A stretch of 64,000 nucleotides of DNA. Origin: Nitzschia sp. pyKryTriq1. Its lineage: Eukaryota; Bacillariophyta; Bacillariophyceae; Bacillariales; Bacillariaceae. The notes below the pieces were generated by a model that was given only the letters and a program-made list of their open reading frames with translations, made no database searches and was not told the DNA's origin. Made by a program: the position numbers and the translations under genes. Shown here piece after piece: positions 9,347 to 64,000 of the stretch (the stretch's first letter is position 1; each line of letters opens with the position of its first letter). The stretch is from contig OY101115.1 of the NCBI GenBank assembly GCA_956465555.1, forward strand, positions 4,192,120-4,256,119, read 5' to 3'.

Positions 9347-10130
9347 GCTGTAGGACGACGATTCGATGATTCTTGACGCTTGACGACGCCCCTTTCATGA
9401 GCAGGCGGCACTCAATCTCATCGTTGCCATCCTTTATTGCACTCTTTCTGAATCAATTCTTGCCGTTGTCAATGCTTGTGACGTTATCAGTACTCTTGTT
9501 CTCTCCACTCTACTATCTACTATATACCATCTACCATCTACCATCTACTAGAGCTGGAGCTAGAGCTGCAAGCTCTCTACTCTAGAGAGAGAGTTTGCAC
9601 AAAGATAGCCGAGCACGATCAAAGAGCGAGGACCGAGGATGATCGATTTTTATGTTTTTGGACTTGTGGCTTGTGGATGATGGATGTGGATGAAATAAAT
9701 ATGAAATAGCATTCGGAGCACAGGACAGACGCTAAAATAGGAGTTGATGATGATTTTTTACGTTCGAATGCATGCATTGTGTTTCAAATGTTTCGACTCA
9801 TTGGAGTCCCCTTTTTTTAATTTTTTTGTTTTGTGTGCTGGGGGGGACGGCTCAGGAAAATGACGATGACGACGAATGACGACGACGAACGATGGTGCAA
9901 AAAAATAATGGCAAACGTCCTGCTTCTATTTTATTTACAGAATTATTGCAGTAATTCTTGCTCATTGCTTCAGTGTCATGGAATGAGCACCGGCATTACA
10001 GTACAGCACGTACAAGTATCATCACACACCATACATCATAAATCATACCGATACCCAACCAAGACAGACATCGTAGTACTACCTACTACAGGTACAGTAG
10101 TACTGTAATCGATCGACAATCGACATCATC
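9347..10130. other. Head-to-head intergenic region
   Basis: A 784-bp region between two divergent starts (the unknown protein on minus and glycosyltransferase B on plus). It contains a CTAC/ACCATC-rich patch with a CTAGAGCTGG-type imperfect palindrome (about 9520-9595), T-rich runs (about 9810-9835) and, just before the ATG at 10131, a short GTAC-rich stretch (about 10070-10110). It must hold both promoters, but no specific element can be named. Confidence 0.5.
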
Positions 10131-12919
10131 ATGGAGCTACGAATATTAGCCCGAAAGCCTTCGCCGCAACGGCAACGTCGCCTGAAATCGTGTGGACAGC
10201 TTCCCATTCTCTTTGGCTTGCTCGTAGTCGTGTGGTTGATCTACTTGTTCAATGTGCTTTCCATGGCCGTGGGTGTCCACAAGTTGGACCCTGCAATGTC
10301 CATAGTGGCTACTACTATGGAGGCGACTTCTTCTCAAAACAAAACCAGCACTGATGCTTCCAGTACAGGTACCAGGAGTACCACTACTACTATTAGCAGA
10401 GACTTGATGAGCTTGCACCATGTCGCCAATACCAGTCCGCAAGAAGTTCCAGTGCATACCGGTACTACGAGTATTATTGGCACCACTACCACGACCACTA
10501 CCACTACCACCAAGAAGGTCGAGACGACGGCGCTGCAGCACTCTTCCTCGGTGGGGGACTGGAGAAAGGAATTGCCGACCGAAGCGTTAGCTCTCATAGA
10601 ACATGCGGCAGGGCACAAGAACGATGCTCCCATGAAAAAACGACGTCCTGGATTTCAAGCCAATCCATTTGGACACATGGTGGAACCGGAAAACTTTCTC
10701 GGGGAAACGGCGACGGCGACGACTGACAAAGAACGCGAGCAACCACTGCCACAACAACACCATCAATCAAGTGGGGTGACACCACCAAAAGATCAAATCT
10801 TGACTGCTTACCTTGAGCCCATTTATCGAGGTGCCTGGAAGAAAGAACCGCTCATGACTCGAACCACTACAGCAAAGGAATTGACACCGCGTCAGTATCC
10901 GAAACTCAATTCCTGCAGCCGCTTGCCTGAACAATGGCCCGTTGATGACTATCCGGAAGACGATCCCTTTTTACCTTGGATTCATGACGTTTTCCCGACC
11001 CACGATGGAAAGCATATTCAGTTCATCGCGCAAAACAAAAGACGATGTCGGACGGGAACAACTCCTGACGAAGAGGCTATTTTAGATCACATGGCGCCCC
11101 AAGTATCTCTCTTTCAGCATGTGCCCTTGAAAAAAGTCGCCGACCTCTCCACTCCCACCAGTCCGCGGTTTCGATTGGCGTCTCACGACGAAGCGGATCC
11201 GGAAAGCATGTCCACTCGATTCATTTGCCGATTCAAACCTTCGGGAGAAATTACCTTTTCCGAATTTAACAATGATTACGAGTGGGCAGGCTTTCGGAAA
11301 CGTCTCCGCCAAATGTTTAGAGAAGATGGGCGTGATAATAAACAAATCCATACCTCTCAGCTGCTGTTCAAATGCCCCATTCCGCCTTCGTTGGTGGACA
11401 GTGTCAAGACGGGAGCCTCCGTGGTGGACGACTGGGCAACACTCTTTGTCGATCTCATTCCAGTAAGAACACCTCCCCGCTACGGTCCACCGGAAGAGTT
11501 CTTAGTCCCCAAATATGCCGACGACCCATCTTTGAAGGAAGGCAACCGCAATATGGGCATATTTGATCCGTTAAAAGCCTGGGGGCGAAACCACATTTTA
11601 CCGGCGTTGGAAGATTCGGGACGCTGGGAGAATATACCCATCTGCAAGCCCAGTTTGTTGACCTATGGCAAGCAAAAGGAAGATGATTCTTCTTCCCAGA
11701 CCATGCAAGCGTCAGCACCACAAGTCCGTTCCACGACGGACCATGCTCCCGCCAAACAGCATAATTTGGTATCCTGTCTTTGGACAAGCACAGGATATAC
11801 GACCCGTGGTAACCGATACGCCATTAACGATGGCCAGCGTCGCTTGGTGGAATGGATCACGTTCAACAAAATTTTGGGATTTGACCATTTTTACATTTAC
11901 GACAACAGTGGAGCCTTTTCCGCGGAGTCTTCGTTGCAGCCCGTGGCAAACTTGTTTCCCGACGATGTGACACTGATTCGTTGGCCGAGCCGAGTCTGTA
12001 ACAACAATCCAAACAATGTGGACAGCGTGGGAGAACGAAGTTCGCAGTATGCTGCAGAATCTTCTTGCCGATTACGATTTGGACCTCATGTCAATTGGAT
12101 TGGACAGTTCGATGTTGATGAGTATCTCGTGCCCAGTAAGTAATGTCATGGAGTTGGTGAGTCGGGACTTGACATGAATCTAATTTGTTTGGTCTTTCCC
12201 ATTTTTGCTTGCTTGCTTGCTTGTTTGTTTGATTACTTTTAGTGGGAAATTACACAAGCATATTGCCCTTGCTGGACAAGCTTGACCAAGAAAATACCAA
12301 AATCATTTCGTTTGCCTCTTGGAGAGCTTGGCCTCGCATCACGCATATCAACCCACCTGTTCCTATCCACGACAAGACTCTCTGTGGACGGAGCGACCCA
12401 TGCTTTGAACTCTCTATTCGCAAAAACACTACCTTCATGGAAGGATACAATTGCGATCGACAACAGCCGGGCAAAAAGAACAAAGTCATGCCTGCGGAAA
12501 AGCAAATATATCGAGCTGATTACGTCACGCAACACTTCATTCACTACTCAACGGTAACTCAAGCTACTAACTTGAAAAATTCAGACTTTAAAGAGCGATT
12601 CGGACGCAAACGTCCCTTCCCGGACCCTCTGTCTCGATTTGGCGACGAAGTCCATGAAGCCCTCATGTTGCACAGCAAGGCGGTGGCACGACAAGACACG
12701 GCAGGCTGGGAGAGGAATTGCCATATGAATTACACGCACAGCAGCTTTGACCAGTGTCGCCTGGGGATCCCATGGCCCGACGGGGAGGACGAAGCCAACC
12801 ACAAGAGCCTACATAACGAGGATGGCTGGCTCTACGACTGCTACGTCAACAAACGTGTTGATAATTTTTGGGGACCCAAGCTTCGTGCTCATCTGAAAGA
12901 AAGAGGCCTTCTGGGGTAG
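10131..12919 (+). CDS. Glycosyltransferase family 92 (DUF23) type II membrane protein, copy B
   Basis: Two exons, 10131-12135 and 12243-12919 (893 aa), with one 107-bp GT-AG intron that falls just after DEYLVP and completes a Met codon, aligning with DEYLIPM of copy A. A basic tail is followed by a membrane helix at about residues 24-47 (LPILFGLLVVVWLIYLFNVL), a long Ser/Thr-rich stem, then the conserved domain: LVSCLWTSTGYTTRGN, VEWITFNKILGFDHFYIYDN, GERSSQYAAESSCRLRFG and FDVDEYLVP with the DxD motif at about residues 661-663. The last part (YNCDRQQPGKKNKVMPAEKQ, YVTQHFIHYSTVT) matches copy A. The stem also shares the block DYPEDDPFLPWIHD with copy A, so both are products of a local duplication about 7 kb apart. 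Golgi localisation is inferred. Confidence 0.85.
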
Positions 12920-13186: not shown

Positions 13187-15162
13187 TTACTTGCGCATTA
13201 CTCTAGACACGAAACCACCGAAGAAGCCCCTGATACCTCTTCTCTTCTGCGGAGTCGATGGAAGAGGAGTTGTGTCTTCGACTGCCTCCTTGTTGCTTTC
13301 GAGAGAAGGGGAAACAAAGTCTTGGGAAGCGCTTGTTGCGACTTGAGGTGAGATTGTTTGGGTGCTCATTGGTTGGGGTCGAATATTTGTTGTTGTTGTC
13401 GCCGTCCTTGTCGGTCCAGTATAGGTATTGTGATTGTTCAGGACGACTGTCTTTCTGGGTGCCTTCTTCTCAGGAACACTCACAGCCTTTTTCTGTCTCA
13501 TTTCCGGAATGGAAAAACACACATATAGGTCCCCTGCTGGACCACCATTGGGACCAGCATCGCCTTGACCTGGGATTCTCATGGTAAACCCATCATTGAC
13601 GTCTTTCGGGATAACTATTTGTACAGACTTGATGGCTTCTTCCAAACCCAATCCACCACAAGAATCGCAAGGGTTGCTCGTGATTCGACCTGTGCCTAAA
13701 CAAGTGCTGCATGTCTCCCTCTTCTGAGACGCATTCATGGTATGCCCGGATCCTCCGCATTTTGGGCACTGGGATACTTTGCATCGGCTTGGATCTTTGG
13801 TTCCAACACCTTGACATTTGGTGCACTTTTCCATATGTCGGACTTCAATCCATTTCTTTCCGCCAGAGTTGGCAGTTTTCACATCGATCTCCACGTCCAT
13901 CAAAACATCTCGTCCAAACTTGGGTCCGCGTCCAAAGAAAGCTTCTCCACTCGTAAACGCAACTCCATCTTGCGGAATGAACATACTACTGTCCGAGTAT
14001 CCACTTCCTGATTGGGCATGTACAGTACCCATATCGCCATAGTAGGCAGTGCTGTCGTTGGGTTTGGGGCCAGTTTGGAACTCTTGACTGCTGGTGGTGC
14101 TTGCCCGCTGACGGGTGCTACCTGATGGCCGCGTGCTGGAACGCGCAGTGCTTTCGAAAATCGATTTGTCCACACGAAATGTATCATGATCGGAAAAGTT
14201 GGGTCCATTGGTTCCTGGGGTAGTTCTTTTGGGGCCTGCGGATTGACTTCTCACGCCGCCCACTGGACTGGGATCAGACACTCGAGCTCGTCCGGATGAA
14301 GACGATGGTCCACTACTGCGACTTGCGGATGTACTCCCAGCTGCTCCCGCCGTAGTATCGACGGATGCGGATCTCGTCCCCTGCGGCCCGCTATTTTGTG
14401 CGAACGGAGACCTACTTTCGGTTCCAGAAGGCCAACCACTTCCAACATCGGGATTTCCAGAATAATAATTGTAGTTCGTGCTGCTGCTTCTGCTGCTACT
14501 CCCAGTCCAAGCCGGATTCGGTGGACGATTATTATTCGGGGTCGGCCGCCGTTGACTTCGAGCCTGTTCTCGTTTTAGATTGTCCACATCACTGGACGCC
14601 GATGTACCGATGCCCTTGCTTCCAAATACATCATAGGATTTCTTTAATTTGGGATCTTTCAACACCTCATACGCTCTGTTTAACATTTGAAATTGCTCCG
14701 TGGTGTCTCGGTCCGGATTGGCGTCTAGAAGGCGTTTAGGGATTGATACGATACAAGTGTACATGTTGATATGAGATAGTGTCGAGGCAGCAAGCAGAAC
14801 GAATTGAAGAGTCAACGATTGAGTCGTCATTGCTTACCTGGATGGTACACTTTGGCTAATCTTCGAAAGGCTTGTTTGATGTCCGATTCAGTGGCATCAC
14901 GAGGGACGCCCAAAACCGCATAAAAATCGACCGAAGTTCCCGCGTCTGGTCGGTGAAGATAATGCAACGAAGTTTTAGGTTGTCGATAGGCAAAGTTCCG
15001 TCGTCGCGATGCCGTTGAAAGAGAGTCCACGAAGGATGATTGGCCCTCGTTATTATTGCTCTTGTTAACACGAGGTATTGTCGATGCCGGAAGTATGAAC
15101 GCACTGGATCGGTAGCCGGCTAGTAGCAATGCTACGGCAACCTTGGATATCGACGACAGCAT
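13187..15162 (-). CDS. Plastid-targeted DnaJ-type co-chaperone, copy A
   Basis: Exon 1 runs 15162-14838 and exon 2 14724-13187 (620 aa, 113-bp intron). The ATG at 15162 gives a signal peptide ending ...[12 protein letters not shown], a plastid-type presequence. A J domain follows ([34 protein letters not shown]); the HPD Asp codon is split by the intron. Next come a long Ser/Gly/Pro-rich linker, four CxxCxG zinc repeats (CTKCQG, CPKCGG, CSTCLG, CDSCGG) and the start of the C-terminal substrate domain ([19 protein letters not shown]). After that point a bacterial DnaJ would continue for well over 100 residues with its second beta domain; here it is replaced by a low-complexity basic tail. It would recruit stromal Hsp70. 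Confidence 0.85.
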
Positions 15163-24002: not shown

Positions 24003-25482
24003 TCAAGGCATCCGTATGTGTTCTGTGTTTCCTTTTCTGATGGTCAAGAAAATAAAGAGATCCCCAGCTGGCCCCCCCATCGGCCCAGCATCGCCTTCTC
24101 CCTTGAGACGAAGTTTTGCGCCTTCCCCAACTCCGCGTGGGATAAGTACCGTGATGTCTTTGGAAGCTTCTTTGACCCCTTTTCCGTGGCACGTCATACA
24201 ATTTTCAGGAACTATTTGACCAGTACCTCTGCAATGGCGACATATTTCTTGTTTGGAATAGTTTTCGGTTGGAGAAAAGCCAGAGGGTGCCGATTTGGGG
24301 AGCACGGCTCCAGTGCCACGACAATGCTCGCAAGTCTTTACCTCAACGCCAGGTTGGATACCGTTTCCAGTACAGGTTGTACAGGAATCTAGATGTTTGA
24401 TGCGAATTTTTTCCTCCCCTCCCTCAAGGGCAGTTTGTAAGTCAATTTCCATTTCTATACTGAGATCGCCTCCAACCCATCGTCGCCGAGTACTAGATCC
24501 GCCGGTCGTTGGTCGCGTAGAGGTAAAATCCATATGATCCGCCATGGATCGACGTGATGGGCCACCCACAGTCCCCATGTGAATGTGTTGAGCACCAAAG
24601 CCAACACCGTTATCAACAAATCTGGAATCGCCATAAATATCCTGCTGCTGAGGCTGATAGCCTTCACTTTCCATCCGTGAGTTGTAAAGATCTGCAAACG
24701 GCGACTTCCATGGATCCCAGGCAGATCCAAATGGACTATCACCTGTAAAACGAGAATCTGGTCTTTGCGCTCTTGGACCAGAATGGGAACCCGCCTGACG
24801 CCGACGAGCGTTGGGATTGGATTGCGCATCGAACGGTGACTGCTCGTAGGCTGGACGACGGGGTGGTGGGGGCTGCGGTTCATGTGGCCAATCGTAAAAG
24901 GGATTCCTGCCTCTATTTACGGTTGTGGGGCGTTTGACGTTCCGAGAAGTAGCAGCCTTGTCACTGCAAGCAGAAGTTCCGAGACCTTCGCTCCCGAAGA
25001 TATCGAACTGGTTCCTTAGCTCTTTGTCCTTTAACACTTCATACGCCCTGTTCAGCTGTTGAAAGATAGACGTAGTGTCCATATCAGGATTTGCATCTAT
25101 TGTTCAGGCACGCAACACAAAGAGTGAGAACGACGGGGATTTCATCGCCACGAGTATTCCGCAGCATTCATATTTACGCACCCGGATGAAACCGCTTTGC
25201 CAAATTGCGATAAGCCCGTTTGATTTCAGCATCATTGGCAGTACGAGGAACCCCAAGAATATTGTAGTAGTCGACCGAAGTATCATGGGGAGAATTTCTG
25301 TACCGCAAAATTGTCGCCTCGGATCGTCGAGATGCCCATGATAATAGATTCGTCGTCACTGCCGCACCTCTTCTCGCGAAAAATAGCAACTCATCTGTTG
25401 ACCGCGGCCCAGTGTTGAGTCCGAATCCCTCCACCCGAGCCACACCAAGCAGAACGATAGCTCTCAGCAACTGAAACTTCAT
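24003..25482 (-). CDS. Plastid-targeted DnaJ-type co-chaperone, copy B
   Basis: Exon 1 runs 25482-25182 and exon 2 25096-24003 (464 aa, 85-bp intron with GTGCGT donor). The ATG at 25482 gives a signal peptide [19 protein letters not shown] followed by Phe20, again a plastid-type presequence. The J domain ([32 protein letters not shown]) is interrupted by the intron inside the Asp codon of HPD, the same site as in copy A. After a Pro/Arg/Gln-rich linker come four zinc repeats (CTTCTG, CEHCRG, CRHCRG, CMTCHG) and the first substrate-domain block ([20 protein letters not shown]), after which the protein ends within 16 residues. Thus, like copy A, it lacks the second C-terminal beta domain and dimerisation region of bacterial DnaJ. 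The shared order and intron indicate a duplication. Confidence 0.85.
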
Positions 25483-47925: not shown

Positions 47926-49642
47926 TTACAGTTCATTTTTCGATGAATCATCACGAGTATCGTCCTCTTTCTTTTTGGAAGGTTGCTCCGATGTATCCGT
48001 CGCTGAGGTCGTTCGAGCTGTATCTTCCTTGACCAAAATTTTGTGCGTCATAATATCATAGTTTGGGCAAAAGTGATAGTTGGTCGTGAATTCATCCAGT
48101 TCTGGAACGTCCAAACTACGATGTATCGCCATGACCATTAGATTGGGTTGTCGATTGATATGAACGCCCGCGTCGGGAAAATTGATTCCACCTAACTTTG
48201 AAGCCTCGTCTTGATCACAAAACAGAAAGACAGTCGCCACTTGATTGGGTTTCTCTACCACAAAGTGTTTCGTGGTGACTCTCGCATGGGTCGCACCAGG
48301 TAATCGACAACTAGCGGGCATTTTCTTTTTGGGATCATCTTTGATGATTCCTTCCAGTTCTTCCTGGGTACAGGTTGGCAAGACAGTGACTCCAGTAGTG
48401 TCCTTGTGAATGTCCAACAGTTCTTCCCCGTGGTTAGTGTATTGACTTTGGAATTCTAAATCGTTCCATCCCAAGGCGAATCGAGCCATTTCATAGAATT
48501 TACTCGCCAGGGAATGGACCAAAATTCCCTGCTTGGTTCGATCGTTGACTGTGGAAAAGGGGATATGGGCTCCTTCAGGAGAAGGAAAGTATTTCAGCGC
48601 TCGACATTCTTCCGGCGTCGTAAAGTTGGGCACTTGGAAAATACTGGAGGTAGGGCGCTCATGGAAGATCTGCATTAGAAATGGTCGATATTCTTCACCA
48701 GGGACTTCCTGGAAGTTCCAGCTGCGATTTTGCACTTCGATGGAAGTATCAAAGTCGACATCCCCACAGGCATAGGGTACTAATTCATTGGCCATTTGAT
48801 GTCGTATCTGCGATTGAAAGTTTCGTTCTTCCTCTTGTTTGGCGAGAGTCTCATTGACCTTTTGTTCCATGCACTCGGTCATGGCGTCCACCAGCTGCAA
48901 TGGATCTAAAGATTTTTCTTTAACTTGTGCTTCGCAGGCATCCAATAATGCATCCGCTTGGGCTTGGGCAATTGTTCGATCGTCTTCATGCTTGACATTA
49001 AAGTCTTTGTCAATCGTAAGCTCTACAAATAACGGATAAGACAATCAAAGCAAAGCAAAGCAAAGACAAAAAAGACAAGTGCGTACAAGAGTGAGGTTTT
49101 AGTGAGTGCGCCCAGCCAAGCCATTCTCGATAGTAGTTATTTAGTTTTCACTTACGTTGTCCTTCTTGTTCATTGACTTGAAAGTATCCTTTTTTACAAT
49201 CGCCCGGGATTCGGCACTCTCCCGTCTTTTTACTGGGCATTTCTCGGACTTCAAATTCATGTCCGATGTAGGAATTGATCCCCTGCTGCGCTCCATAGGG
49301 ATATCCTTCTCCGCTTTCACTGTTGCTAATAAATGTGTTGGGTTGAACCGACCGATTGATCCACAAGACATCCACCCGACGGCCCGATTGGTTGTGGAGC
49401 TGGATAGTTCGTTGATTGGGCGTTTCTCGTCGCTCCTTGCCCAAGGCTGCGGCATTCACAGTACCAGTAGTAGAAAGTTGAAGAATCAGCATCAATGCGG
49501 AAAGCGCCAGCAGTCGTCGTTGTTGTCCATTCTTCCAGAGAGATCGGCTTTTGCTTTTGCTGCTCCAGTTGTTCGGGTTGTTGTCATTGTGAAGGACCGA
49601 AGCATAATCATCATGAAGGTACCGGTAGGATAAAATCTTCAT
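47926..49642 (-). CDS. VHL-beta-like domain fused to a prolyl-4-hydroxylase-like 2OG-Fe(II) oxygenase
   Basis: Exon 1 49642-49156 and exon 2 49022-47926 (527 aa, 133-bp intron). An N-terminal signal anchor (LLALSALMLILQLSTTGTVN, about residues 44-63) suggests the ER or secretory pathway. Residues about 78-163 resemble the beta domain of pVHL: TIQLHNQSGRRVDVLWINRS and GINSYIGHEFEVREM correspond to pVHL's N-R-S...V-x-W and H-S-Y-x-G-H-x-W blocks. A helical linker follows. The C-terminal half reads as a P4H-like double-stranded beta helix: iron ligands H368 and D370 in LLDIHKDTTG, GGINFPDAG, the distal His479 in NYHFCPNYD, and Lys490 (THKILV) for 2-oxoglutarate. Typical P4Hs hydroxylate proline in collagen-like or cell-wall proteins. 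The fusion puts a hydroxyproline-reader fold next to a writer fold. Confidence 0.75.
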
Positions 49643-51973: not shown

Positions 51974-52738
51974 CTAGAGCTCGATGTTTTCATTGTCCTC
52001 CGAGTCGGAATCGCTGTCGATTTCTTCGTCGCCTTCTTCAACCGTTTCTGTCCCCGACGACGACGACGACGACGACGACTCAGTATCAACTTTAATCTTG
52101 TCAAACATGGTTTTCATTGGATCGTCTTTCTTTACAATAGAATCTGGATACTTAAGCAGAAGCTTTACAAAAAGACCCGCCAGCTTGCTCGGCGTATCAG
52201 CCTTTGCTGCCAGTGACTTGGATTTTTCCACATTCTCAGGAGCATATTTCTTGTAAAAGTAGCGAATCGCAGCTTCTCTCTTCTGGGAAGCTTGATCCGA
52301 AGGCGTACACTCGCATGCTTGGTATTGCGATTCATCGAATTTCTTGCATCCGCCCAACTTCATCATCATCGTGCTCAATTCCACATCCTTGGTACATTTC
52401 TCATCGTCATCTCCACACGTTTCCTTGGCACAGGCATCGAAGGTCGAGTCGCACGTCTTTTTCGAGACTCCGCAAATCTGATAGCACGCGTGCCACTGGT
52501 GGCAACAACTCTCATAGGGTTTTTCACCAGTCTCACCCATATTCATCATTACGGCGCCACCACCCATACTCGAGCAGCCAGTCGATTCAAACTTGGTGCG
52601 AGATTTGGGAGCGGGTGTATGACCCGAGCTACACCGAAAGTTCGGGCAGTTCTGGTTCATCATGTTGTTAAAGTCAAAATTTTGACCTCGACCACGGGCG
52701 ACAAGAAACACAAAGGTAAATAGAAATAACATCTTCAT
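51974..52738 (-). CDS. Secreted group-XII-like phospholipase A2 homolog, probably inactive
   Basis: Single exon from ATG at 52738 (254 aa). A signal peptide (MKMLFLFTFVFLVARGRG) is followed by a Cys-rich domain whose spacing matches PLA2 group XII: STGCSSMGGGAVMMN, SCCHQWHACYQICGVSKKTC, DACAKETCG and LGGCKKFDESQYQACEC. In active PLA2s the helix reads CCxxHDxCY, with His as base and Asp as calcium ligand. Here it reads C78-C79-H-Q-W82-H83-A-C85-Y86, so Trp is at the His position and His at the Asp position. By analogy with vertebrate PLA2G12B, which also lost its His, this is likely a lipid-binding, non-catalytic protein. A long acidic Ser/Asp/Glu tail follows. Low catalytic activity is inferred, not shown. 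Confidence 0.8.
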   Translation of the reverse strand: MKMLFLFTFVFLVARGRGQNFDFNNMMNQNCPNFRCSSGHTPAPKSRTKFESTGCSSMGGGAVMMNMGETGEKPYESCCHQWHACYQICGVSKKTCDSTFDACAKETCGDDDEKCTKDVELSTMMMKLGGCKKFDESQYQACECTPSDQASQKREAAIRYFYKKYAPENVEKSKSLAAKADTPSKLAGLFVKLLLKYPDSIVKKDDPMKTMFDKIKVDTESSSSSSSSGTETVEEGDEEIDSDSDSEDNENIEL

Positions 52739-55137
52739 GATAGCGTATAGCAAAACCTATTCGAGTTGTCTGATAGGAGTAGTACCGGTGGATGTATGCA
52801 ATGCCGATGTCGCCTTTCGCCTTGACAGTGCGAGTAAGAAAAAAAGGATGAGGTGCAGAGAGTGGAGACTACTCTACCGGTACTACAGCAGTGCTTGTAG
52901 AGCCGATAGCCGCGAAACCAAAAGAAAACGTGGGGCTCTCGCTCTATTCCGTCGCATTCTTGAAGGCCTTGGAAGTCGGCAGGAATCGAACGAGTCAGAT
53001 GTGCGAGTACGTGCGTAGGTACTACGAACCGGTATCGGAAGTCACAGATCAAAGTGCCGATGCCGACATCAGTTGGGAGAATGAAAATGGTACAGCGACG
53101 AAAGGCACACAAGTGTACGAATTGACGGCTCGAGAGATCCAATTAGATAGCTTACCATGGTAAGCTTCCAGTAGTTTTTAAAGCCTTCCCCTCTACTCCC
53201 ACGTTAAGAAAATGGACCCTTGGTTGCGCCTCTTTGCGGACGTTGGGGGACTGCTCACCAGGACGAACCAGTGGAAGTGGAAAAGAAGGATTTTGTAAAT
53301 GACCCCAATCTCCGAGCCGACTGGATCAAAGCCTTGACCAACATGCCGACCTTGTTCCTGCTCATCCCTAATTTGTCGAAACTCATTTCGATAGTCGACT
53401 CATTGTAAAGACAGTAGATGATCAACAGTGATCATAGGGATCAAAGCAAGGGCTCAGTGGGCAGGCACTGCTGCTAGTTCTTCTTGATGGTGCTACTAGT
53501 ACTAACAGGGAGAATAACACTGTCAGGTGTGGATGTGCCTCTACCCTCTGGTAGAGAGGCAGTAGTTGGCAATAGCCTACGAATATAACTACAGTACTAC
53601 GTAATAGTAATTGATATTGAATTGAATGCGTCATCATCGACGGACCGAAACGAGAATGACGCGTTGGCTAGCTGACGCACTTCAGCTCCCTCGAAATCAA
53701 CGTGAAGAAGTGCAACTGGCGGATGTGTATGACGCTGGCAGCGATTTAATGACCTTATGTAAAACAAGGAGCGCGTTGAATTTGAACCTTTCGTCGTTAT
53801 GTATTTTTAATTAATTAGAATCATCATCCAATCGAATGTGCGTCAAATTGAAAATCCAGAAGCAGAACAACGACAGCTGCTCCCATCTGCATGCACCCAC
53901 GCACGGCAGGGTAGGAGTAAAACCGGTACCTGGTACAAGCAGAGTAAAGTAGTAGTAGTACCTGGTAGTACAGAAGTACAGTACCGGTACTCGTACCGGT
54001 ACGGATCCACAGGAGCTCGAAATCTTTTCCCGCCATTATTATGTTGTAATTCTTTTTCTCGTCGTTGTCATCGTCTTTTATGTTTACCCTCGCAACATCA
54101 GTGTTATTGAGCAATTGAAACACCCATCTTCATCGCATCGATCGTATTATCGGCGAAGCCGAGATCTATTTTGAATCGGCAAGATAAAATTCAATATCAG
54201 GTATGTGAGTCTGGTAATGTCGAGAAAACTGGGACTGGAGATTTGGATTGGCACAGATCATGTACTGTACCACCACTTCCTTGCAACTCATTTGCATCGG
54301 CATTGGTGGCATCTCGTCCTAGTAGTAATCTTCCAAACTGAGCCTCTCGAATTCGTCGACCATGTGTTGTTGTTCTCCCTGACCATGGATCCTTCGTCCT
54401 CGTTGTTTGCAGTTGGATTCCCTCGATTTGCCTGGCCGGTTTTTATTCTTCTTTGTCTTCCGGCTAAACATGCCAAACATGATGGCTCTTTTGGACGCAA
54501 TGGAAAAATCATGTTGCGTCGGGATCACGGGCTGCTTTGACCAACATATTAGCGAGGCGTAAGCTCATCCGAGCATCGTATTTCCTGGAGGCACGAAGTT
54601 GCATTCGTCGTAATCCGACCGGAAGTAGAGAGGCAGGGCCATCTCCCACCCTTTTCGTCATGGTCGTCTTCGTCGAAGAACGAAAGACGCAAAGCGATGG
54701 GGTCGAGATGACGAAAGAGCCACCGCAAAAGCCAGCACACCGGACAACTGGAAGTGAACTGGCTCTTCCAATGAGATCCCACCATTGCCGAATTTGCGCT
54801 TTGCTGCGTCACGCAAAAGCTGTTCATGTGGTGCGTCACGGTTTGGCTCGCGCACATTCGTCTAATTGAGTTGGATGAGGTCTCCAACCGAAAATGTCCA
54901 AGCTACATTTTTATCCGTAATGAAATTACTCGTTCCCTCCAATTCGTTTTTACATAGCAGAATTCAGACATTTCAAGTTTGAAGTTGCCGTGCGGATATT
55001 CTCTTGCGTTTTTGTGTTGATTTTCGTCTTCCGTCACGATAGACACCAACTATAATATTGTTGTGTGTTGGATTAAAACAAGATCTTTGAAACGAATCTA
55101 AACCTCTAACTTAGCCTTTCGTGTAAAGACTGCAGGA
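52739..55137. other. 2.4-kb intergenic region with GTAC tract and one weak gene candidate
   Basis: Open frames on plus at about 52890-53163 and 53220-53408 are readable but start without ATG or family support. A GTAC tract (about 53925-54010; TACAGTACCGGTACTCGTAC) lies in the middle. A minus-strand candidate at 54166-54480 is listed separately. No other gene is supported. Confidence 0.45.
54166..54480 (-). CDS. Possible small basic protein with an in-frame TAG
   Basis: From an ATG at 54480 the frame encodes MFGMFSRKTKKNKNRPGKSR and goes on to LSLEDYY, a TAG (54319-54321), then DEMPPMPMQMSCKEVVVQYM and a stop at 54166. The sequence after the TAG has protein-like composition in the same frame, so the whole could be one small gene with a stop inside, a read-through case, a missed short intron or a chance frame. 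No family is recognised and no second line of support exists. Confidence 0.25.
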
Positions 55138-62738: not shown

Positions 62739-64000
62739 ATGACCATGACCGCCACTTCCGATCGTCACGAAGAGTCTGCTCTAGGCAGCGGAGACGCAAG
62801 TCCCTCTTCTTTTACCAAGGTAAGACCAACCAGAGACTCTGGAGGTGAGGATTGGTTATTCTGTTTAGTTTCAGCGCCTGTTGTGCTAACGTGAATGCAC
62901 ATCATATTATTTTTATTCTCGTCGAAAGATCTTCAACAAGTCGACACAGTACACCGAGGAGGCGATTCAAACGTTCGAACACACCTTCGGCAAGCATTAC
63001 ATGTCGGCGGGAGGAGAAGCCATGACGGGTTTGATGATGGGAGCCTTGCAGGCACCCAAGGGCTGCTCCATGCTCGACATTGGCTTTGGCATCGGCGGTG
63101 CCGCTTATGCATTTGCCGAGACCTTGGATGCGACAGTCCGTGGGATCGATGTCGGTGTTCAAGGATGCGAATTGGCCAAGGCGGAGCTAGTTCGACGCAA
63201 CGAGGAACGTGTGGCCGCTGGACTCACTCCACTTAAAATTACTTTTGAGCTGGAAGACTGCACCCAGGCTGATTACGCGCCAGAATCGTTCGATGTTATT
63301 TATTCGCGAGACACTTTTGTTCATTTGTCTGCCGAGAGCAAGGAAAAGGTATTTGCCAACTGTTTCAAATGGCTCAAGCCGGGTGGAAAGATCTGCATCG
63401 CCGACTATTCCCTCGGACGCAATTCCGACGCGTCGGGACAACCGACGCCAGCATTTGCCCAGTATTTGCAGGCTCGAGACTACCATATGTACACTGCTAA
63501 GCAATATTCGGTGGCCCTGGAAACACCGGGATTCACCGATGTCAATGCGAGAGATATGGCGCATTGGTACTGTGTCACCTGCCAGACCGAATTGGATCGA
63601 GTAGCCCAACCTGGACCCAGTCGCGAAAAGTGTCTGGAAGAACAGGGAGCAGAACAAGTGGCCAAGCTGGAGCAAACCTACGAAAACAAAATTCAAATGA
63701 CCTTGCGGGGAGATCGTTCTTATGTTTTGATTACAGGTGTCAAGGCTGATGGTGAGGCTGAATCGTCGGCGTCGCTCCAAAAAGAAGTCCAAGAAGCCTA
63801 TCTGAAGCTTTACAACAAAGGATGGGTCATGAGTTGCGACGGAAACTTGTCGGCACGGGTGGCTCCAGGATCGCCTGACTTTTTCGTGACACCCACGGGC
63901 ATTGATGCTACCCAGATTGAACCCTCACAAATTGTTCGTTGCAATGGCAACGGCAAGACCGATGGTGCTATCAAACCGACTTCGGAAGTGGATTTGCACA
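62739..64000 (+). CDS. SAM-dependent methyltransferase (PMT-like) fused to class II aldolase domain, 3' end outside window
   Basis: Exon 1 62739-62819, intron of 109 bp, exon 2 from 62929 and open to the window end. The first domain is close to phosphoethanolamine/phosphobase N-methyltransferases: YMSAGGEAMTGLMMGALQAP, SAM motif I MLDIGFGIGG (about residues 76-84), FELEDCTQADYAPESFDVIY, SRDTFVHLSAESKEKVFANC, FKWLKPGGKICIADYSLG. At about residue 312 a class II aldolase/adducin-type domain begins: AYLKLYNKGWVMSCDGNLSA, FFVTPTGIDATQIEPSQIV and IKPTSEVDLH, matching the family's N-x-S, T-P-S/T-G and KPSSE motifs. Such domains retro-aldol-cleave sugar phosphates or dehydrate methylthioribulose-phosphate. 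Joining the two in one polypeptide is unusual; the substrate link is unknown. No presequence is clear, so a cytosolic protein is likely. Confidence 0.82.

What the first reader, a model, noticed from the sequence alone, without database searches (positions are those of the whole stretch)
47926..49642. VHL-beta-like domain and P4H-like oxygenase in one secretory protein
Seen: exon 1 encodes a signal anchor plus a domain with pVHL-like blocks (HNQSGRRVDVLW, INSYIGHEFEVRE), and exon 2 encodes a 2OG-Fe(II) domain with HxD, GG-x-FP, distal His and Lys in the P4H order. Known: animal pVHL reads hydroxyproline made by PHD-type prolyl hydroxylases, as separate cytosolic proteins. Inference: here a reader and a writer of hydroxyproline are fused and probably face the ER lumen, which could make a processive hydroxylase for cell-wall or frustule proteins.
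Basis: partly seen in the sequence, partly recalled or inferred. Interest (0 to 1): 0.75.

Follow-up and report, generated by a model that had tools for sequence, protein, structure and literature searches.

The report
VHL-like domain fused to ER hydroxylase
An algal-type gene appears to join, in one protein of the secretory pathway, a domain resembling the human VHL reader of hydroxyproline and a domain resembling the enzymes that make hydroxyproline; the join looks real, but what each half does here is untested.

Summary
The N-terminal domain resembles the VHL beta domain: PF01847 is its only listed Pfam match, though below the cut-off (14.7 against 21 bits), and it outscores 5000 shuffles against a VHL profile. 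A model made with bacterial VHL relatives matches pVHL entries first in the PDB; that help makes it non-independent. Equivalents of pVHL Ser111 and His115 are kept. The C-terminal domain resembles prolyl 4-hydroxylases weakly: no Pfam match, a P4H-profile match at the EEC segment, HxD and GGxxFP in order. A VHL/selenoprotein M fusion in an alga is in print (PMC7539508), so algal VHL fusions are not new; my searches found no description of this pairing. Best reading: an ER oxygenase with a VHL-like substrate-docking module; whether it reads hydroxyproline is open.

The parts
49156..49642 (-). exon 1 (residues 1-162 and first base of codon 163)
   Evidence: positive codon score in frame
49023..49155 (-). 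intron, 133 bases, GTAAGT...TTTGTAG, phase 1; if retained, translation stops after two more codons and gives a 164-residue protein without the oxygenase
47926..49022 (-). exon 2 (rest of codon 163 to residue 527, stop included)
49448..49516 (-). hydrophobic signal segment, residues 43-65, after a basic stretch; either a type II anchor or cleaved near VNAAA
   Evidence: hydropathy maximum at residues 44-62; the type is inferred
49157..49423 (-). VHL-beta-like domain, exon 1 part, residues 74-162; W94, I122, S124, Y125, H128 and F130 align with pVHL Trp88, Ile109, Ser111, Tyr112, His115 and Trp117
   Evidence: pocket residues from PMC9528729 and PMC6650433 (passages)
48994..49022 (-). probable last strand of the VHL-like domain, residues 163-172, encoded in exon 2
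   Evidence: inferred from the sequence; not in the model, which covers exon 1 only
48775..48984 (-). helix-like charged linker, residues 176-245
   Evidence: inferred from sequence; not modelled
48028..48672 (-). P4H-like 2OG-Fe(II) domain, residues 280-494
   Evidence: no Pfam match
48598..48645 (-). P4H-type segment around NFTTPEEC, residues 289-304
   Evidence: hhalign P 3e-4, 0 of 300 shuffles as high
48400..48408 (-). candidate iron ligands H368-K-D370
   Evidence: sequence; only H-x-D/E after the EEC segment; not paired with the P4H HxD by the global profile alignment
48175..48192 (-). GGINFP, residues 440-445, over the P4H GG..P motif
   Evidence: P445 falls on the P4H Pro, the GG is shifted by one column
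48073..48075 (-). candidate distal iron ligand H479
   Evidence: order and spacing by eye; one search did not align it
47929..47940 (-). C-terminal KNEL, residues 524-527, KDEL-like ER retention signal
   Evidence: the pattern [KRHQSA][DENQ]EL is recalled

Best explanation
The gene encodes an ER-lumenal 2OG-Fe(II) oxygenase of the prolyl-4-hydroxylase type with an N-terminal VHL-beta-like module. The module most likely docks proline-rich substrate, as the separate peptide-substrate-binding domain of collagen P4H does (recalled), and quite possibly prefers hydroxylated proline. Shown by sequence: one spliced frame, signal segment, KNEL end, VHL-beta similarity above shuffles, the Ser/His pair that in pVHL contacts the hydroxyl, and P4H-type motifs in order. 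Inferred: that the oxygenase is active, that its target is prolyl, that the module binds peptide, and that it reads hydroxyproline.
For: One gene: GT-AG intron, open phase-1 join, in-frame codon preference. ER: signal segment and KNEL. VHL-like: only Pfam family listed for the domain, BLASTP E 2e-4, first of 5953 targets and local hhalign P 2e-4, and the 50 listed PDB structure matches, of 789 at E up to 10, are entries of pVHL complexes at probability 1.00. Pocket: W94, I122, S124, Y125 and H128 identical to pVHL; pocket defined in passages. P4H-like: EEC segment P 3e-4, 0 of 300 shuffles as high; global profile score 20.5 against a best of 14.6 in 100 shuffles.
Against: PF01847 score below the curated cut-off, nothing for the full-length protein, no pVHL found by phmmer in PDB sequences, and only 1.7% probability (P 0.011) in global hhalign. 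The model without relatives failed (pLDDT 37); the better one (74.9) used an alignment with 32 bacterial VHL domains, so its match to pVHL is not independent; no match reached E 0.001 (best 2.9e-3), query TM 0.43-0.57. No Pfam, NCBIfam or PDB-sequence match for the oxygenase. The profile alignment did not pair H368/D370 or H479 with the P4H iron ligands. The equivalent of pVHL Phe91 is Arg97. No eukaryotic relative could be searched for, so conservation of the fusion is untested.
Confidence: 0.5

Rival explanations
1. The VHL-like module is a general peptide-docking or structural beta-sandwich and does not read hydroxyproline; it only positions unmodified substrate for the oxygenase.
For: VHL-beta domains occur away from hydroxyproline signalling: on DPP-IV/S9 peptidases in bacteria (four of eight proteins scanned; 24 of 57 VHL loci by similarity) and on selenoprotein M in Aureococcus (passages). 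Trp117 is Phe and Tyr98 is uncertain here.
Against: The two residues that contact the hydroxyl in pVHL are both kept (S124, H128), as are W94, I122 and Y125; in 36 of 37 non-redundant bacterial domains Ser111 is Thr, so Ser is not simply inherited background.
Confidence: 0.4
2. The oxygenase half is catalytically dead or hydroxylates something other than proline.
For: No lysine at the P4H 2OG position can be assigned; by eye the last strand fits best with Asp485 there. About 50 residues separate D370 from the next P4H-like strand. Profile support is marginal.
Against: HxD, GG-x-x-FP and a later His remain in order; K490 could serve if the loop has an insertion.
Confidence: 0.3
3. The N-terminal domain is another secreted beta-sandwich, thaumatin-like for instance, with VHL resemblance by convergence.
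For: Sub-threshold Pfam score; no PDB sequence match; two thaumatin-named viral proteins among the 50 listed BFVD matches.
Against: First of 5953 targets against a VHL profile; PF01847 the only Pfam family listed at E up to 10; the 50 listed PDB matches are pVHL complexes, though the model was made with VHL relatives.
Confidence: 0.12
4. Two separate genes, wrongly joined.
For: Exon 2 is open for 372 codons on its own. No RNA data were available.
Against: Exon 2 has no Met before residue 210 and no signal segment, yet ends in KNEL; exon 1 read through the intron stops after two codons; canonical splice sites restore the frame.
Confidence: 0.05

Closest known systems
pVHL beta domain (PF01847)
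   Same: N-x-S, W88, I109, S111, Y112, G114 and H115 equivalents; pVHL-like strands in the assisted model
   Different: Below the family cut-off; no alpha domain (VHL box, PF17211) found; secretory rather than cytosolic; longer stretch between W94 and S124 (30 against 23 residues); F130 for Trp117; two Cys (143, 149) in a later loop
ER prolyl 4-hydroxylases (collagen P4H alpha subunit, Chlamydomonas P4H-1)
   Same: nF-x-x-x-EEC segment, HxD, GG..P, later His in order; ER signals
   Different: No Pfam match, long insert after HxD, 2OG lysine unassigned; N-terminal module VHL-like instead of the collagen enzyme's peptide-binding domain (recalled)
Aureococcus selenoprotein M-pVHL fusion (PMC7539508, passages read)
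   Same: VHL-beta domain fused to another protein in an alga; selenoprotein M is recalled to be ER-resident
   Different: Partner is a selenoprotein, not an oxygenase
Bacterial VHL-beta on DPP-IV/S9 prolyl peptidases
   Same: VHL-beta module joined to an enzyme concerned with proline
   Different: Peptidase, not hydroxylase; in the 37 non-redundant bacterial VHL domains, with or without peptidase, mostly Thr at Ser111 (36) and Gln at Ile109 (32)

Membership tests
VHL beta domain, PF01847 | score above the curated cut-off of 21 bits | tested here: not met
   14.7 and 15.3 bits for two cuts of the domain
VHL beta domain, PF01847 | hydroxyproline pocket Trp88, Tyr98, Ile109, Ser111, His115, Trp117 | tested here: inconclusive
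   four identical (W94, I122, S124, H128), Trp117 is F130, Tyr98 is F104 or Y116
VHL beta domain, PF01847 | VHL beta-sandwich fold | tested here: inconclusive
   pVHL first in PDB, but the model used VHL relatives; single-sequence model failed
pVHL E3 substrate receptor | VHL box (PF17211) binding elongin C | tested here: not met
   no match in the full-length protein at E up to 1; human control matches
Prolyl 4-hydroxylase | match to a 2OG-Fe(II)/P4H family model | tested here: not met
   no Pfam match, no NCBIfam match
Prolyl 4-hydroxylase | iron ligands HxD...H | tested here: inconclusive
   H368, D370, H479 present in order but not paired by profile alignment
Prolyl 4-hydroxylase | 2OG-binding lysine after the distal His | tested here: inconclusive
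   K490 is eleven residues after H479 and not aligned; by eye D485 fits the strand better
Prolyl 4-hydroxylase | hydroxylates peptidyl proline | not testable with these tools
   needs enzyme assay
ER-lumenal soluble protein | signal segment plus KDEL-like C-terminus | tested here: met
   hydrophobic segment 44-62 and C-terminal KNEL; pattern recalled, no dedicated signal predictor was run

The most novel reading that the evidence does not exclude
A hydroxyproline writer and a VHL-type hydroxyproline reader are fused in one ER protein, so that binding to a first hydroxyproline keeps the enzyme on a proline-rich chain; this would place VHL-type reading of hydroxyproline in the secretory pathway of an alga, apart from ubiquitin and hypoxia signalling.
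Probability: 0.27. Interest if true: 0.78.

Novelty: new variant of a known kind. Interest (0 to 1): 0.52.

Why it matters
In animals the making and the reading of hydroxyproline are done by separate proteins and feed oxygen sensing. A single ER protein holding both folds would suggest that the VHL beta domain began as a proline or hydroxyproline docking module for secreted or processing enzymes, a view that the bacterial peptidase fusions found here also suggest. It makes a testable prediction: the isolated N-terminal domain should bind hydroxyproline peptides.

Tried and rejected
Relatives: the oxygenase and the VHL-like domain alone found nothing in viral contigs, nor did A1 in genome contigs and viral contigs or A2 in viral contigs. 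A2 in genome contigs found 28 bacterial VHL loci. phmmer of either half against PDB sequences found nothing. tblastn: no match for the oxygenase in phages; one chance match (E 9) for the VHL-like domain in plasmids. No eukaryote genomes are held, so conservation of the fusion in other algae could not be tested. No second copy in the window at E up to 1.

Single-sequence structure prediction of exon 1 failed.

The ordered-motif test gave 14 of 100000 shuffles and 1 of 182 window frames (this gene), but I wrote the pattern after seeing the gene and only 5 of 25 P4H-type sequences match it, so I give it little weight. No P4H-profile match at E up to 0.01 lies in the 57 bacterial VHL loci, so no second reader-writer fusion was found there. 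Plastid targeting considered and set aside: no Phe follows the AAA site and the C-terminus is KDEL-like (recalled rules, no predictor run).

Full report
What is there. On the minus strand, exon 1 (49642-49156) and exon 2 (49022-47926, stop included) join across a 133-base GTAAGT...TTTGTAG intron in phase 1 to give 527 residues. Sixteen GT-AG pairs in the scanned stretch keep the frame open; this one joins the only GTAAGT donor among them to the TTGTAG acceptor. A codon model trained on ten other window frames is positive in frame for exon 1 (0.075) and exon 2 (0.133) and negative for the three forward frames of the intron. Exon 2 alone has no Met before residue 210 and no signal segment, so a separate second gene is unlikely.

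Location. A basic stretch precedes a hydrophobic segment (44-62), and the protein ends in KNEL. By the recalled rule for KDEL-like signals this fits the ER lumen. There are six N-x-S/T sites, five of them after the segment. No dedicated signal-peptide program was available.

The N-terminal domain. PF01847 (VHL beta domain) is the only Pfam family listed for the isolated domain at E up to 10 (HMMER's filters drop most weak matches), at 14.7 bits (15.3 for the shorter cut) against a cut-off of 21. The full protein gives no Pfam match at E up to 1, and phmmer of the domain finds no PDB sequence at E up to 10, although pVHL chains are in that set. BLASTP with human pVHL: 15 of 51 identical, E 2e-4 for the single comparison. 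I gathered 57 bacterial VHL loci (28, 4, 25; four genes occur twice) and built a profile from 37 of them (those under 80% alike) plus human pVHL. The window's exon-1 frame and the spliced protein, which hold the same domain, rank first and second of 5953 targets (5000 shuffles, 952 window frames, and the spliced protein); the next, a shuffle, scores 7.5 bits. The scores are low in absolute terms (12.8 and 10.0 bits; E 0.031 and 0.23). hhalign gives P 2e-4 and 46.8% probability locally, but P 0.011 and 1.7% in global mode.

Structure. Alone, the domain folded poorly (pLDDT 37). With 32 bacterial VHL rows, chosen from the 37, it reached pLDDT 74.9 and pTM 0.65. The 50 listed PDB matches, of 789 at E up to 10, are all entries of pVHL complexes, probability 1.00, best E 2.9e-3, query TM 0.43-0.57; none reaches E 0.001. 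Because the alignment was of VHL domains, this is support, not proof. The model lacks the probable last strand, which exon 2 encodes.

The pocket. Two papers (passages read) give Trp88, Tyr98, Ser111, His115 and Trp117, with Ile109 or His110, as the hydroxyproline pocket; Ser111 and His115 bond to the hydroxyl. Here W94, I122, S124 and H128 are identical, N123 stands at His110, F130 at Trp117, and Tyr98 is F104 or Y116. The 37 bacterial domains all keep Trp88, Tyr98, His115 and Trp117, but 36 of 37 have Thr at Ser111 and none has Ile at Ile109 among the residues counted. The window protein is thus more like pVHL at Ser111 and Ile109 than the bacterial domains are, and less so at Trp117.

The oxygenase. 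No Pfam, NCBIfam or PDB-sequence match; PHROGs lists one chance-level match (E 0.16) at residues 210-230. A profile of eight P4H-type sequences aligns over 36 columns at the EEC segment with P 3e-4; none of 300 shuffles reaches its score (32.5 against a best of 22.4). With a profile of 25 sequences the local score is 31.2 against 18.7, and the global score 20.5 against 14.6, in 100 shuffles each. The two local alignments cover different parts: the EEC segment, the stretch from GGINFP onwards. In one search P445 falls on the P4H Pro with the GG shifted by one column, and H368/D370 and H479 are not paired with the iron ligands.

How it may work. The simplest mechanism is a docking module plus an oxygenase on one ER protein. 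Reading of hydroxyproline is the bolder form, favoured by the Ser/His pair. It is weakened by the wider use of VHL-beta domains: they sit on DPP-IV/S9 peptidases in the bacterial set (four of eight proteins scanned by Pfam; 24 of 57 loci by similarity, L028 and L031 being the same gene) and on selenoprotein M in Aureococcus (PMC7539508, passages read). None of the 57 bacterial loci holds a P4H-profile match. The association with prolyl peptidases may mean that proline binding is the older role; that is inference.

Novelty. Nine searches of the held library on VHL with prolyl hydroxylase, algae, diatoms, protists or bacteria showed no description of this pairing in their listings; apart from the passages cited, those papers were seen as listings only, and the library lacks most subscription journals. 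Bacterial proteins with a VHL domain are already in print (PMC9002001, listing only). Databases of predicted proteins were not available, and such fusions may already be listed there.

Noticed in passing
L028 765-811 aa, L033, L041, L043 and other loci: VHL-beta domains are joined to DPP-IV/S9 prolyl peptidases: four of eight bacterial proteins scanned and 24 of 57 loci by similarity, L028 and L031 being the same gene. PF01847 matched in 63 of 291 genomes of the phylum of G001.
   Followed up: partly
L001-L027: Micromonospora and Verrucosispora contigs encode a VHL-beta domain; the L001 protein (285 aa, domain near its C-terminus) has no other Pfam match.
   Followed up: partly
62890-63999: One open frame holds a methyltransferase domain followed by the start of a class II aldolase domain, cut by the window end.
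   Followed up: no
662-2854 and 10101-12140: Two frames with a GT92 glycosyltransferase domain at nearly the same position in the frame.
   Followed up: no
13190-14833 and 24006-25103: Two DnaJ-type frames with central CXXCXGXG and C-terminal domains, both on the minus strand.
   Followed up: no
51977-52756: Group XII secretory phospholipase A2-like frame near the finding.
   Followed up: no
model m16f890bd6ca5 (window 49157-49435) against BFVD: Best viral structure match is uncharacterised M686L of Paramecium bursaria Chlorella virus MT325 (E 2.5e-3, 14% identity).
   Followed up: no
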